Source: Bolinopsis microptera
Taxonomy: Eukaryota > Ctenophora > Tentaculata > Lobata > Bolinopsidae
Assembly (NCBI RefSeq): GCF_026151205.1
Contig: NC_087072.1
Location: forward strand, 7,736,084-7,800,083
DNA: 64,000 bases
Reading direction: 5' to 3'
Every line of letters begins with the position of its first letter. The first letter of the stretch is position 1. Below the pieces are notes generated by a model. The model saw only the letters and a list, made by a program, of their open reading frames with translations, did no database searches and was not told the DNA's origin. Made by a program: the position numbers and the translations under genes. Below, piece after piece: positions 12,401 to 18,400 of this stretch.

Positions 12401-15400
12401 CACAAATATCTGCCAGAATCGCAAAACATAAACTACTAGGTACTATTTGACAACCATTCTAACATTGAATCACACTATGTCTGTTGTACATTCCTAAATT
12501 CCGATTCGATCTTACATTCAAGTTTTACTGTCCTTGATTCTCGACAGCGAAATTCCCTGCACATGTCACGGGTCATCTTATTTGAAGCTCAGTTTGTTAG
12601 GAAAGTTGGAGTGTGATATCGCCGTGCGAATCACAAAACAATTTGGAAATACGAGAATTAGTTTACGTGTAAAACACTATAAGTAAACTATCGAAACGCA
12701 TAAATTATTTGAAAATTATATATCATGCCAATACAGGACCAGGGAGGTTATAGACATGTTTGTGTCAAATCAGTGAATTACAATAGACCGCTGGTAAATT
12801 ACTGGCACTTATACAATTTTTGGAGTATACTTGTAGCGAGCTAAATTCTAATACAATGGACTCAATAAATGGCGTTATTATATAGATTTAATGTTATGAG
12901 TGTCTGCTATTAAATGTATGGCTTTTTAAAACTATCCTAAAATGTATTATTATTATTCTTCTTAAAATGCACTTAAATTCTCGGAACATACTATCTGTTA
13001 AACTGTAATGAAACTGTCAAATCATGATTTAAGGATTTAGAGTAAACACGGTTTAGGACTTACCTATTGAAAGAATGGCTATATTATAAGAAATGACTCT
13101 ACATGAACCACCAACAGGAAGATTTCTAATTCGATCCTTTGTAGTCGCCTCAAATTAACTGCACCCCTCGGTTCATCAGAACGGATAACGAAGGACGTTA
13201 TCAATTATACAGGAGCCGGGGGGGGGGGGGGGGGGGGGGGGAGGAGGCCGGGGGTGGCATAAGTCACGTTTAGGGAAAGATCTAAAACAAAGACAAATAA
13301 ATTCGTCATTAATTCGGCAGTGAGACATCATATCTAAACACGTGCATTTGTCTTCGAATGCTTGATATGTGCTTGTTAGTGTTTCCAGTAGTACACACCA
13401 CAGAATGGCTTACTACTCGACTCTGTATATTTTCTTGCTCTATATATATTATATATATATATATTCTTGCATTCGAACTTCAACTGATTTCCAGTTGGTT
13501 TCCTTGCAACTTTTAGTTCTGTAACACTTACTAGTTTCATAAAATCAGATGGCTATATATCTCATTAGATGATCGCTTTTGTGACGTCACATCTTCACTT
13601 TTAATAACGTCACTTAATCGCACATTTCGTCCACCACACGTTGATAATATACTGCATTTCTTGACAGATATAATTACTTCCTCTGACTTTCAAAGGTTCC
13701 GTCAGCTAATGCGATGAGTTCCGCACAAGATCATTCACCTAGAGCTCGAGGAAAGAAGTCATGCAGTCCCAACAAGAATATCACTCTAGCTTCTATACCC
13801 CAGGAAGAAAAATTCGAAGATATTCTTATCAAAATATGTGGGGACGATAAAGGGGAGATCAGTATTCCAGACTTGATAGGAAAATTGAATCACAACGGCT
13901 TCTTGGTTTGTAAGGATTTAAGACTGAGACCGTTGGTCGATAAACTGCTGATAAAGTTATCGGGATCAGGGGATGATAAGTACAACAGCTATAACTTAAA
14001 GAAAACTATACCTGTGACACATTTGACGGATCTTCCCAAGGATTGCGAGGACATTATCAAGAAAACGCTCTTCGGAAAAGCACTTATACCAGAGTTTTCT
14101 CGGTTTTCAGATGATCTGCTAAAAATGTATGACAAAGTCGCCGAAATAAAGACAGGGAAAATTCCCGCATTCCTTCTTTCCGAGAATTTCAAAGATCACT
14201 GGGGGGTCTCTGTTTGCACGACAGATGGTCAGGTTTGGTCACATGGAGACAATAGCATTCCCTTTACCTTACAGTCGGGCAGTCTTGCGCTGAACTACGC
14301 GATTGCCATCACCCGACTCGGCAGCGAGGTTGTACACGGGTATGTGGGTAAAGAGGTAGCAACGAACAGCATGATTAATACTTTAGATCTAGACCAGAAT
14401 GGAGTGCCTCACAATGCCATGACACAAGGTGGAGGCCTGGCTATCACGTCACTGCTGCTCAAGGAGACACCCAACAACCTACCTACTGGCTACGAGAACA
14501 TTGTTAGTCAATACCAGAGTCTAGCGGGCGACAAACCACTCAAAATAAACAACACTGTTTATCTCGCTGACAAGAGAAACTGTGACAGAAAGTTCTCGAT
14601 CGCTTATCTGCTGAAGGAACAAAACTCGTTTCCACCAGACTTGAAGCTGAAGAATATAATAGACCTGTACTTCTTACTGAACTCAGTGGAGATAACCTGC
14701 GAGATAGGGGCAGTGATAGCCAGTACTCTCGCTAATGGTGGGGTCTGTCCCACTACAGGTAAAGAGGTTCTCTCGACCACTGCAGTACAGAACACGCTGT
14801 CTATCATGAACCTGCAGGGCATGTACAGCTACTCAGCGGAGTGGATGATCCAGACTGGGCTACCTGCTAAATCCTCCTCCTCTGGGATGATCATGGTGGT
14901 GGTGCCCGGTGTTATGGGCATGTGTCTTTACTCGCCCCCGTTAGATGAGAATGGGAATAGTGTGCGAGCGCTAGAGTTCGTACGCAAAGTGTCAAAGCGC
15001 TTCTCTCTGCATTACCTAGACAGCCACATTGCAGCACCAATTACTAAGGAGAACTTGATGCACCGCCATGAAGGGAAGGAGTCGCACGAACAGGTTATTA
15101 TGAACGTGATGTATGCAGCAGCGCACGGTGACAAGAACCTGCTGGACCGATACTGTGAGCTAGGACTAAACCTGGACGTTACGGACTACGATTACCGCAC
15201 TGCACTCCATCTGGCATGCTGCAATGACAACATTGATATTGCGCGCTACCTGATAGAGCGGAAAGTTAACGTTTTCGCGCTGGACAGGTGGAACCGCACA
15301 CCCCTAGATGATGCAAAGCGCTACGGGAGTAAAAAGCTGGTGGAGCTGCTGAGAGAACATGGTGCGAACGAGGGACCGGGGAAGATCCAGTACACAGAGG

Positions 15401-18400
15401 AGGAGGAGGTTAATCAGAGATAGAGAATAATTCTAGAGTTAGAGTCAGGGTTTGAGTTAAGATAAGGGTCCTGGGGTACGATGTCTTGAAGAAGGACGAG
15501 GCAGAACAGACTTATTGTTATGTAGCGAAGAAAGCAGGACAATGATGTATACCTAAAAAACAGAGAGCGAGAGAGAGCGAGAGAGAGAGAGAGAGAGAGA
15601 GAGAGAGAGAGAGAGAGAGAGAGAGAGAGAGAGAGAGAGAGAGAGAGAGAGAGAGAGAGAGAGAGAGAGAGAGAGAGAGAGAGAGAGAGAGAGAGAGAGA
15701 GAGAGAGAGAGAGAGAGAGAGAGAGAGAGAGAGAGAGAGAGAGAGAGAGAGAGAGAGAGAGAGAGAGAGAGAGAGAGAGAGAGAGGCATAGCGCGGTGTA
15801 TTAGTACAGCGGGTTAGAAGTAGAGAGCGTGGTTTATTACATTTACTGTGGATTGTATTGCTCTTCTAAGCAACACATTACACAAGAAGTAATCAATCTC
15901 TTACATTGTTATAATATGATGTTTTATTGTTGTGGTAATACAATGTACATTTTACAGTGATTCTCAGTGTTCGACACGTAATGTACAGATTGTTGAGCAC
16001 CTGTTTCAATGAACCTTTACTGTGTATTAGTAGTACACCTATTAAAACGTCTATAATTTATATACAATACATTAATGATAATGATTTTAAAGTGATACAT
16101 TACAGTAAATGAGGGATTACACAGGATTACACAGGATTAAAGGATTTACACAGGAATAAAATTAAATTATAGATCCATTATCATGGACCGTCATAATTGT
16201 ACAGAGATTAATGAAAACATTCATCTTTCCTTGAAGTCAGGGCCAGGGTTATCCTTAAATCTTAATTATGACTAATTCGCGAGGTTCTCACCAAATTGAT
16301 AGTAAAATTGTTTAAGTTTCGTGCATTTGAATTACGTTGACGCATATCTTCGGTGAAGCTATTTCGCTCTTCGGAGCAGCGAAGGAAATAAGTGCACACA
16401 CAATTGACAGCATAGGAGCGCCTTTCTTGAAATTGAATATACTGTGGGGTGTTTGGTTGAATATTAAGTGAACGGTGGCAGTGAATATGGAGGCTCTGGT
16501 GATTTTGAGGAATTACAGTTGAGTTAGGAGACAAAATTTCCATAAGATGGACTTTGAGATTTGTTTCATTGATATTGCTTGAGTCGGTGATTTCAGTGCT
16601 TATTTCAATGAGTGGCATTTGAGAGAGATTTTTGACTAATTTCGACCTCTGTTTTGAATACAAGTCACATATGTAAAGAACATGAGACTCGTCTTCGATT
16701 GTCTCAACGCCCATACTTGATTGACACCACGCACATAGTCTTTGCTCACGGGGTGTGTTGGAGTATCTGCCTTTTTCAATATGGAGATCGTGGGCGCTGA
16801 TTCTAAGTTTTGTGGTGCTATAACGACGAGAGAAGCCTTTGCATAAGTGTAAGTAGGGCTCTCGTTTAAAGGTGTGTTTGATTGAGTGATAGAATGAGAG
16901 TTTGGAAGAAGTAGATTTCTGATATTCCCAACATTTTTTGAATTGATTGGTTAGAGCTTCGATGATGTTAGGAATACTATACTTTTTGCTGCATAGTGGT
17001 TTGATACATTGACTGGAATTTGACTGATTTTTGAGGGAGTCTTTTAAAAATTTGTGATCACTTACAGGGTTGGGCTTGGCTTTGTTGGCCGCATTTGTAT
17101 TGAGAATTCGGTGCGCGGTTACGTGATCTAGTTTGTAAATTTCATCTAGTTCAAGGAGTGGTTTTATGTATCGATACCAAGGTAAGTTTAGTGATTTTTG
17201 TTCTTTTACGGCTGCAGTAACAAACGAATTCGACTTTGATTTTGTATTTAGCCTTTTGAAGTAATTTAATGTTAAGCGAATTGATTGATAAATCAGAGGA
17301 ATTCTCCCTGTTTCTCCCCATACACCTACATTTGATGCTTTACGATGGACTCCCAAAGCCCATTTTAAGAATGAAATATGCACTCTTTCTTGCAGAGAGG
17401 CGCTGATTTTTTTAAGTAAGTTAGTAGCGGTTGCTTCTGTCGAGTTAATCGTTTTGCAGAGAGATTTGTTGATCGTACTAGTGGGTGTCCATATTGGAGC
17501 ACCATATAATAAAATGGGCTTGATGAGAGAGTCGAACAGTGTAAGGAGTGCTTTAAAAGTGTCTGCTGCACAAAACACAGGTCCTATAAATCTGTCAAGG
17601 TGTGCCCACCCCCAGGTTGTGTAATCAGTGTAGGGTGTGCCCACCCCCAGGTTGTGTAATCAGTGTAGGGTGTGCCCACCCCCAGGTTGTGTAATCAGTG
17701 TAGGGTGTGCCCACCCCAGGTTGTGTAATCAGTGTAGGGTGTGCCCACCCCCAGGTTGTGTAATCAGTGTAGGGTGTGCCCACCCCCAGGTTGTGTAATC
17801 AGTGTAGGGTGTGCCCACCCCCAGGTTGTGTAATCAGTGTAGGGTGTGCCCACCCCCAGGTTGTGTAATCAGTGTAGGGTGTGCCCATCCCCACTGCTGA
17901 CTGCACCCCTCCCCCGGACCAATACCATCACATACTGAGCTTTTTGTTGCTCAACTCAGGCTTGAATATTGCATTTAATGAACTTGCAAACTGGCGGAGA
18001 AGTTGCGTAAGTTTGTTACGACACGTGGCATGGATCTGTTAATAGGATTGCTCACAGGCTCACTATTGCAAGCTGATTGGTTAATAACTACCTCCTCATC
18101 TGTTTACAAGTCAATGAAACCGCTTTCCAAATTCCGTCAGCTTCCCGATTATAATTAATAAGATGTTTGGAAAATAATATGCGATAATGGCTCGCATTAT
18201 TTTTTAATCCAAACGAAATTTGAGTCTGATAATTTGATGGTATGGATGTGGGTAGTGAGTACCTCGCTCTCAGACACTGCAACTCCATTATAAGAAATCG
18301 TGTTCATACTTGATCGTCATTGGTCGGGCTGAATCCATTATAAAGGCATTAGAGGCAGTATTAAAGACTATAGCAGCGTCACATGAATCCAATAACAGCA

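What the first reader, a model, noticed from the sequence alone, without database searches (positions are those of the whole stretch)
13714..15423. Intact glutaminase-family gene that has lost its catalytic lysine and most substrate-binding residues
The frame is undamaged over 569 codons and keeps fold motifs and ankyrin repeats. However, the SxxK active pair reads Ser188-Gly-Ser-Leu191, and positions equivalent to human Asn335, Asn388, Val484 and Tyr249 are changed. A random dead retrocopy would be expected to gain stops. An open frame with loss focused on the active site suggests selection for a non-enzymatic role, such as a decoy subunit in glutaminase tetramers or filaments, or a glutamine sensor.
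Basis: partly seen in the sequence, partly recalled or inferred. Interest (0 to 1): 0.8.

Follow-up and report, generated by a model that had tools for sequence, protein, structure and literature searches.

The report
Inactive glutaminase in comb jelly genome
This comb-jelly gene encodes an intact glutaminase-like protein that has lost its catalytic machinery; most glutaminase-family genes found in the same genome have lost it too, and some of these have clearly been kept by selection, so the known glutaminase expansion of comb jellies may be partly non-enzymatic.

Summary
ORF 13714-15423(+) is a full-length animal-type glutaminase (569 aa). Its catalytic Lys289 (human numbering) is Leu, 6 of 9 catalytic or substrate residues are changed, and two lid residues are missing. 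It is not isolated. Assembly statistics match the ctenophore Bolinopsis microptera. I found 16 glutaminase loci there (a lower bound): 6 keep all nine residues, 10 have lost the lysine. Five of the ten form a clade with Ser286 to Asp and Lys289 to Arg. After that change the clade evolved at dN/dS 0.063 (0.118 in the clade of four active copies plus one single-change copy), so these dead glutaminases are maintained by selection. For the window copy, dN/dS=1 is rejected over its whole branch (2dlnL 57), no stop has accumulated, and losses concentrate on the active site (3/9 kept versus 56/75 other invariant sites). Selection after its own loss is inferred, not shown. A glutamine-sensor role is unlikely, as ligand residues are gone. 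A filament decoy is somewhat weakened. My best guess is a regulatory or scaffold partner using the subunit core and ankyrin repeats. Published work reads 8-9 ctenophore glutaminases as extra glutamate synthesis; here most found copies cannot use the standard mechanism.

The parts
13714..15423 (+). Intronless open reading frame, 569 aa, glutaminase-family protein without the catalytic lysine
   Evidence: in-frame stop TGA upstream at 13684
13714..14145 (+). N-terminal region aligning with the N-terminal domain of human GLS (19% identity over 97 aligned residues); boundary approximate
   Evidence: identity; alignment
14176..15015 (+). Glutaminase domain (protein residues 155-434)
   Evidence: Pfam match
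14170..14178 (+). Lid region: Tyr249 to Phe153, Ile250 to Leu154, then two residues (human Pro251-Gln252) missing
   Evidence: lid role from PMC10912226 passages
14275..14286 (+). SxxK motif reading Ser188-Gly-Ser-Leu191 (TCG ... CTT); catalytic lysine lost
14368..14397 (+). Activation-loop region. Phe318, which stacks on Lys289 in human, is Ile221. 3 of 10 residues are as in human GLS, but the active ctenophore copies also have only 3-4 of 10
   Evidence: role from PMC10912226
14425..14427 (+). Asn335 to Gln238
14569..14571 (+).
14590..14592 (+). Asn388 to Lys293
14878..14880 (+). Val484 to Ser389
15109..15369 (+). Ankyrin repeats, intact; 43% identity over 91 residues to the intron-rich active paralogue C11_10.07M
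   Evidence: Pfam Ank_2 at residues 466-552; identity
16155..16160 (+). Possible polyadenylation signal AATAAA downstream (an ATTAAA lies at 16041)
   Evidence: motif only, no expression data

Best explanation
The gene is a long-lived pseudoglutaminase of a ctenophore (Bolinopsis microptera by assembly statistics), one of ten glutaminase loci found in that genome that have lost the catalytic lysine. Shown here: the frame is intact, the domain order is that of animal GLS, catalytic and ligand residues are gone, one clade of related dead copies is under strong purifying selection after the loss, and the family needs at least two losses. Inferred: the protein folds like GLS but cannot hydrolyse or grip glutamine. 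Most likely it acts as a non-catalytic regulatory or scaffold partner, through the subunit core shared with active glutaminases and through the ankyrin repeats, tuning where or how much of the active enzyme makes glutamate. Component probabilities: no conventional glutaminase activity 0.9; a maintained function 0.8; that function works through hetero-oligomers with active paralogues 0.4.
For: Sixteen glutaminase loci (41 profile matches grouped by me; fetched; spliced models). 6 of 16 keep all nine catalytic or substrate residues and 10 of 16 lack Lys289. Loss is concentrated at the active site at p<0.05 in 9 of 10 dead copies (window p=0.018; C6_12.01M p=0.11 is the exception). The five-gene D-x-x-R clade has omega 0.063, lnL -5608.2 against -6057.0 at omega 1, versus 0.118 for four active copies plus C6_12.01M. 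Pair C5_16.99M/C6_4.17M: dN 0.052, dS 1.08-1.39. Arg289 there uses CGA, CGT and AGG, so the residue stayed while codons changed. Window branch: omega=1 rejected, 2dlnL 57.4. Codon-position GC of the window gene (0.513/0.360/0.547) lies within the range of its paralogues. All ten dead copies as one clade rejected, p-AU 5e-9. Dead copy C11_281k lies beside two active copies on the same strand, matches about 4-5 kb apart. Human GLS works as tetramers and filaments, and the hydrolysis-defective Y466W mutant makes persistent filaments (PMC10912226), so dead subunits can in principle change assembly.
Against: No expression, interaction or activity data. The window branch cannot be divided into before and after the lysine loss, so its omega may partly reflect an active past; the point estimate (0.007, branch length 33) is saturated and unusable. 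The window keeps 2 of 7 human filament contacts, with two changes (F373I, Q416L) seen in no other copy, which speaks against filament co-assembly. Its active-site enrichment (p=0.018) is modest and not corrected for ten copies tested. In the D-x-x-R clade the former site residues are held about as well as the rest of the domain (6 of 9 against 169 of 286 columns), so no special constraint on the rebuilt pocket is shown. No orthologue from another ctenophore could be compared.
Confidence: 0.45

Rival explanations
1. Independent adaptor: the dead copies no longer touch active glutaminases and work as stand-alone scaffolds whose ankyrin repeats, and in the D-x-x-R clade a rebuilt pocket, bind other partners.
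For: Ankyrin repeats are present in the models of the window and other dead copies. Some filament and tetramer contact residues differ in the old dead copies. In the D-x-x-R clade Leu249, Asp286, Arg289, Leu381, Leu388 and Asn466 are fixed in 5 of 5 genes.
Against: No partner known. The GLS core itself remains 44-45% identical to active proteins in the window, which an ankyrin adaptor alone would not need. Active ctenophore copies also differ from human at several contact residues.
Confidence: 0.28
2. The window copy is a decaying gene: it was active for most of its history, lost the site recently and has not yet gained a stop.
For: Long branch (1.55); fewest matches to the human filament contacts of all 16 copies; its branch omega cannot be dated.
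Against: Neutral drift gives a first stop at a median of 1.1% and a 95th percentile of 4.5% divergence (4.9% by calculation), so any neutral phase must be very short, yet six of nine site residues are replaced, and CTT needs three base changes from AAA or AAG. Third-position GC is 0.547 against window GC 0.383.
Confidence: 0.12
3. Neo-enzyme: the retained Ser188, Tyr319 and Tyr371 catalyse a different reaction or use a different base.
For: Ser286, Tyr414 and Tyr466 equivalents are kept in the window.
Against: The base that activates the serine in human GLS is the lysine (PMC10912226), replaced here by Leu with no Lys in the motif; five further site residues are changed; the best-constrained dead clade has no serine either.
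Confidence: 0.08
4. Glutamine sensor or substrate trap: binds glutamine without hydrolysis and signals by assembly.
For: Plausible for another copy, C6_12.01M, which differs from active copies only at Lys289 (Met) among the nine residues, keeps 6 of 7 filament contacts, and resembles the human Y466W trap in principle.
Against: For the window, N335, E381, N388, Y249 and V484 are all changed and the lid is shortened. For C6_12.01M a single base change (AAG to ATG) makes an error or a very recent change possible.
Confidence: 0.06

Closest known systems
Animal phosphate-activated glutaminase, GLS/GLS2 (Pfam PF04960 with ankyrin repeats)
   Same: Homology over nearly the full length, same order of N-terminal region, glutaminase domain and ankyrin repeats
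   Different: Catalytic lysine and most ligand residues absent; lid shortened by two residues
Expanded ctenophore glutaminases, 8 in Pleurobrachia and 9 in Mnemiopsis (PMC4685580; five passages read)
   Same: Same gene family expansion in the same phylum
   Different: The paper relates the expansion to glutamate signalling and bioenergetic demand; the passages read do not mention missing catalytic residues. Here 10 of 16 copies found lack the lysine
Catalytically dead paralogues that regulate active partners: trypanosome AdoMetDC prozyme and deoxyhypusine synthase paralogue (PMC5201418, PMC3663545; search listing with start of abstract only)
   Same: Dead copy kept beside an active one, acting in a complex with it
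   Different: Different enzyme families; regulation was shown there by experiment and is only inferred here

Membership tests
Glutaminase family (PF04960) | Match to the family profile above its cut-off | tested here: met
   251.3 bits against a cut-off of 27
Active glutaminase (EC 3.5.1.2) | Ser-x-x-Lys catalytic pair | tested here: not met
   Ser-Gly-Ser-Leu
Active glutaminase (EC 3.5.1.2) | Substrate and catalytic residues Y249, N335, E381, N388, Y414, Y466, V484 | tested here: not met
   2 of these 7 kept (Y414, Y466). The list itself is partly recalled
Animal GLS architecture | N-terminal region, glutaminase domain and ankyrin repeats in one chain | tested here: met
NCBIfam glutaminase equivalogs | Score above curated equivalog cut-off | tested here: not met
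   Best 197.8 bits against 557; TIGR03814 195.8 against 255.4. These models serve bacteria and archaea and no active animal copy was run as a control, so this is weak evidence
Pseudoenzyme | Enzyme homologue with catalytic residues missing | tested here: met
   (by sequence; no structure was obtained)
Pseudoenzyme | Maintained by selection after the loss | tested here: inconclusive
   Shown for the five-gene D-x-x-R clade; for the window only the whole branch could be tested
Pseudoenzyme | No catalytic activity and a non-catalytic role in the cell | not testable with these tools
   Needs protein and animals
Filament-forming glutaminase | Human filament contacts F355, F373, N375, F378, Q379, D412, Q416 | tested here: inconclusive
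   2 of 7 kept (N375, D412); six active ctenophore copies keep 4-6 of 7; only F373I and Q416L are unique to the window. Whether ctenophore enzymes form filaments is unknown

The most novel reading that the evidence does not exclude
Ctenophores have built a layer of selected, catalytically dead glutaminases that outnumber the active ones (10 to 6 among the loci found in this genome), including a clade whose former active site was rebuilt into a shared Asp/Arg/Leu pocket with a new ligand or partner. The expansion of glutaminases in a phylum thought to rely on glutamate signalling would then be mainly regulatory or structural, not added glutamate synthesis.
Probability: 0.35. Interest if true: 0.85.

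Novelty: new variant of a known kind. Interest (0 to 1): 0.72.

Why it matters
[quoted passage not shown] Counts of glutaminase genes have been linked there to expanded glutamate synthesis. If most copies cannot hydrolyse glutamine, that inference changes, and a direct test becomes possible: assay six predicted active and ten predicted dead proteins, and see which are expressed in nerve and muscle. It would also be a large natural set of dead glutaminase subunits for asking how glutaminase assemblies are controlled.

Tried and rejected
Recent dead retrocopy: rejected. The branch is long, no near copy exists among the matches (the best other full-length matches are 39-40% identical), and three other family members (C11_286k, C11_291k, C6_12.01M) are also intronless with intact frames.

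Assembly error at the active-site codons: unlikely for the window (six separate residues; CTT needs three changes from AAA/AAG). It stays possible for C6_12.01M, which differs by one base.

Single ancient loss for all dead copies: rejected for all ten (p-AU 5e-9), not rejected for the nine older ones (p-AU 0.31), so two or more losses, not ten. The place of the window in the tree is unresolved (with the SCSK clade p-AU 0.45, with the D-x-x-R clade plus C5_2.87M 0.28, neither rejected).

Structure prediction of the window protein had not finished at the last poll, so no model was used. A genome search with a D-x-x-R protein did not complete, so 16 loci is a lower bound. An 18S search (RF01960) did not complete either. 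Plasmid search: no match. Rfam on the window: no match at gathering thresholds. The bacterial promoter and terminator scan does not apply to an animal.

Model weaknesses: C1_1.99M has no resolved N-terminal half (lid exon not found in the fetched stretch; residue 249 not scored). C5_7.85M has an uncertain exon edge after the motif. C6_4.17M is joined across a modelled 7.3-kb intron and has one unresolved exon edge with two stops. C5_2.87M is incomplete at its C-terminus. C3_16.75M and C5_7.85M show no ankyrin exon in the stretch modelled. None of the 16 loci was dropped from the residue counts. Four loci (C3_16.75M, C5_7.85M, C1_1.99M, C5_2.87M) were not used in the codon models. The human GLS2 sequence used is that of entry 8t0z, which carries an engineered change in the activation loop (Ala at the Lys320 equivalent); none of the nine residues is affected.

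The odds of the first two explanations were lowered slightly (0.50 to 0.45, 0.30 to 0.28) because all odds together had exceeded one.
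Full report
What was claimed and whether it is there. The open frame at 13714-15423 is real, 569 codons without a stop, with an in-frame stop upstream at 13684. It is a glutaminase of animal type: Pfam Glutaminase E 1.5e-74 plus ankyrin repeats, and human GLS and GLS2 chains at 1e-101 to 1e-104. Human numbering below is that of kidney-type GLS. The list of nine catalytic and substrate residues (Y249, S286, K289, N335, E381, N388, Y414, Y466, V484) is partly recalled; Tyr249, Ser286, Lys289 and Tyr466 are named in the parts of PMC10912226 that I read (section 8 part 1 and passages). 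It also lacks two lid residues next to Tyr249.

Which organism. The window is G000:C1:7736084-7800083 of a 264,652,675-base assembly in 232 contigs. Contig C1 is 26,206,493 bases, C11 is 20,825,282, C12 is 15.2 Mb and C14 only 198 kb; window GC is 0.383. Table 1 of PMC11797021 gives for the ctenophore Bolinopsis microptera 265 Mb, 13 chromosomes, largest 26.2 Mb, N50 20.8 Mb, GC 38.5% (passages); it gives 346 scaffolds, which differs from 232. The genome carries ionotropic glutamate receptor genes (32 profile matches). Of two receptor frames searched, one has the receptor ML032222a as best solved match and the other has vertebrate kainate receptors first, with ML032222a further down (that this label is a Mnemiopsis gene is recalled). 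That receptor matches this genome at 72-75% identity in two pieces of one place.

The family. A search with PF04960 gave 41 matches, which I grouped into 16 loci (fetched) and modelled with a spliced protein-to-DNA alignment written for the purpose. Six loci keep all nine residues: C11_286k, C11_291k, C11_5.23M, C11_10.07M, C3_16.75M, C5_7.85M. Ten lack the lysine: the window (SGSL), C6_12.01M (SCSM), C11_281k (SLRD), C1_1.99M (SCMY), C5_2.87M (ASVL), C5_16.20M (DFSR), C5_16.24M (DLTR), and C6_4.17M, C5_16.99M, C5_17.01M (DLNR). In the last six the serine is gone too. The genome search reports lower bounds, and a second search with a D-x-x-R protein did not complete.

Is the loss focused on the active site? 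I took columns of the glutaminase domain that are invariant in the six active copies and in human GLS and GLS2, with at least seven of the eight present (85 columns, all nine site residues among them). The window keeps 3 of 9 site residues and 56 of 75 others (Fisher p=0.018). The other dead copies: C6_12.01M 8/9 and 76/76 (p=0.11); C11_281k 4/9 and 61/76 (0.03); C1_1.99M 3/8 and 53/68 (0.026); C5_2.87M 2/9 and 55/76 (0.005); C5_16.20M 0/9 and 59/76 (8e-6); C5_16.24M 0/9 and 61/76 (3e-6); C6_4.17M, C5_16.99M and C5_17.01M each 1/9 and 59/76 (1.6e-4). These are not independent (five share a clade) and not corrected for ten tests. In a leave-one-out control each of the eight reference proteins keeps 9 of 9. 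Phe318, which stacks on Lys289 in human GLS, is Phe or Tyr in all eight lysine-bearing proteins and in C6_12.01M, but His, Ile, Ser, Ala, Gly or a gap in the other nine dead copies: the partner residue went with the lysine.

Selection. The clean case is the clade of five genes that share Asp286 and Arg289: by parsimony every branch inside it lies after the loss. There omega is 0.063 (lnL -5608.20; -6057.03 if fixed at 1; 506 codons), lower than 0.118 in the set of four active copies plus C6_12.01M (517 codons). Pairwise, C5_16.99M against C6_4.17M gives dN 0.052 and dS 1.08 to 1.39. The two youngest branches have a higher ratio (0.16, against 0.049 for the older ones). Arg289 is encoded by CGA, CGT and AGG, and Leu249 by CTA, CTC and TTG, so residues were held while codons changed; 6 of 9 former site positions are invariant, close to the average of 169 of 286 columns, so the rebuilt pocket is held but no more than the rest of the domain. 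For C6_12.01M omega is 0.16 and omega 1 is rejected (lnL -7031.76 against -7038.54). For the window branch omega 1 is rejected (2dlnL 57.4), and for C11_281k (2dlnL 8.5). But synonymous change on the window branch is saturated (fitted length 33), so the window point estimate means nothing, and the test covers the time before the loss as well. In simulation (base changes only), neutral drift from an active copy to 45% protein identity leaves 15 stops on average, at least 5; the first stop appears at a median of 1.1% divergence, 95th percentile 4.5%. So any unconstrained phase of the window gene must be short.

History. The best tree (18 proteins, 514 columns) puts the window on a branch of 1.55 changes per site with no supported neighbour. 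All ten dead copies as one clade are rejected (p-AU 5e-9); the nine old ones as one clade are not (p-AU 0.31). If the lysine is ancestral, it was lost at least twice. C5_2.87M shares 8 of its 11 modelled intron positions with one or more D-x-x-R genes, which agrees with their common origin in the tree; its model was guided by a D-x-x-R protein, so edges may lean that way. The window, C11_286k, C11_291k and C6_12.01M have no intron in the coding region.

How it probably works. In human GLS the lysine deprotonates the serine, the activation loop and lid close over glutamine, and tetramers stack into filaments during turnover; a hydrolysis-defective mutant that still binds glutamine makes persistent filaments (PMC10912226). 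The window protein lacks the base, most ligand residues and part of the lid. It keeps 2 of 7 human filament contacts. Of the five differences, Q379L is shared by all 16 ctenophore copies, F355Y and F378Y each occur in at least one active copy, and F373I and Q416L occur nowhere else. Its activation loop matches human at 3 of 10 positions, no worse than active ctenophore copies at 3-4 of 10. It keeps Asp386, Arg387 and Glu397 of five tetramer or phosphate contacts examined, and the ankyrin repeats. I therefore favour a regulatory or scaffold partner acting at the dimer or tetramer level or through the ankyrin repeats, rather than a filament decoy or a glutamine sensor. The substrate-trap idea fits C6_12.01M better than the window. 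These steps are inference.

Known or new. Ctenophore glutaminase expansion is in print: 8 genes in Pleurobrachia and 9 in Mnemiopsis, related to glutamate signalling and energy demand (PMC4685580, passages). Searches of the held library: no paper with the word pseudoglutaminase; 7 papers with both ctenophore and glutaminase, of which I read passages of one; one paper, the same, holding five of six terms on ctenophores, glutamate, glutaminase and pseudoenzymes; five papers for phrases on inactive glutaminases or glutaminase paralogues, whose titles concern other topics. Broader searches listed 20 of 53, 15 of 17 and 10 of 185 papers, and no listed title concerns dead animal glutaminases. This does not show that the point is unpublished, since most subscription papers are not held. 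Pseudoenzymes as a kind are well known; a set of dead glutaminases that outnumbers the active ones is, as far as these searches go, a new variant.

Verdict. Observation confirmed; interpretation partly supported and considerably widened. The window gene alone would be a moderately interesting pseudoenzyme; the family of ten, with one clade demonstrably kept by selection after the loss, is the finding.

Noticed in passing
L016, L017, L018, L023 (G000:C5) and L009, L010 (G000:C11): Four dead D-x-x-R copies lie within about 0.8 Mb on C5, and on C11 (281-292 kb) one dead copy lies beside two active ones, all three on the same strand.
   Followed up: partly
L009:3520-3936 (minus strand): The open frame of dead copy C11_281k carries about nine in-frame copies of a 14-residue repeat (STDSSRGSAPPHPQ) upstream of its glutaminase domain; whether it is in the mature mRNA is unknown.
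   Followed up: no
L019 against the other loci: The intron-rich active copy C11_10.07M shares almost no modelled intron positions with the other intron-bearing copies, which could mean intron loss and gain in this family.
   Followed up: partly
G000 matches (for example L036, L037, L039): 10 of 32 glutamate-receptor profile matches lie in open frames of 900 or more residues, so long intronless coding regions are frequent in that family here.
   Followed up: no
window 15562-15785: An (AG)n tract of 112 copies starts 139 bases after the stop codon and may lie in the 3' untranslated region.
   Followed up: no
window 6539-8104 (+): Intronless 521-aa papain-family protease with an I29 propeptide and a ricin-type lectin match just under its cut-off.
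   Followed up: no
window 16262-17644 (-): 460-codon open frame without a Pfam match; by eye it resembles the end of a non-LTR retroelement protein.
   Followed up: no
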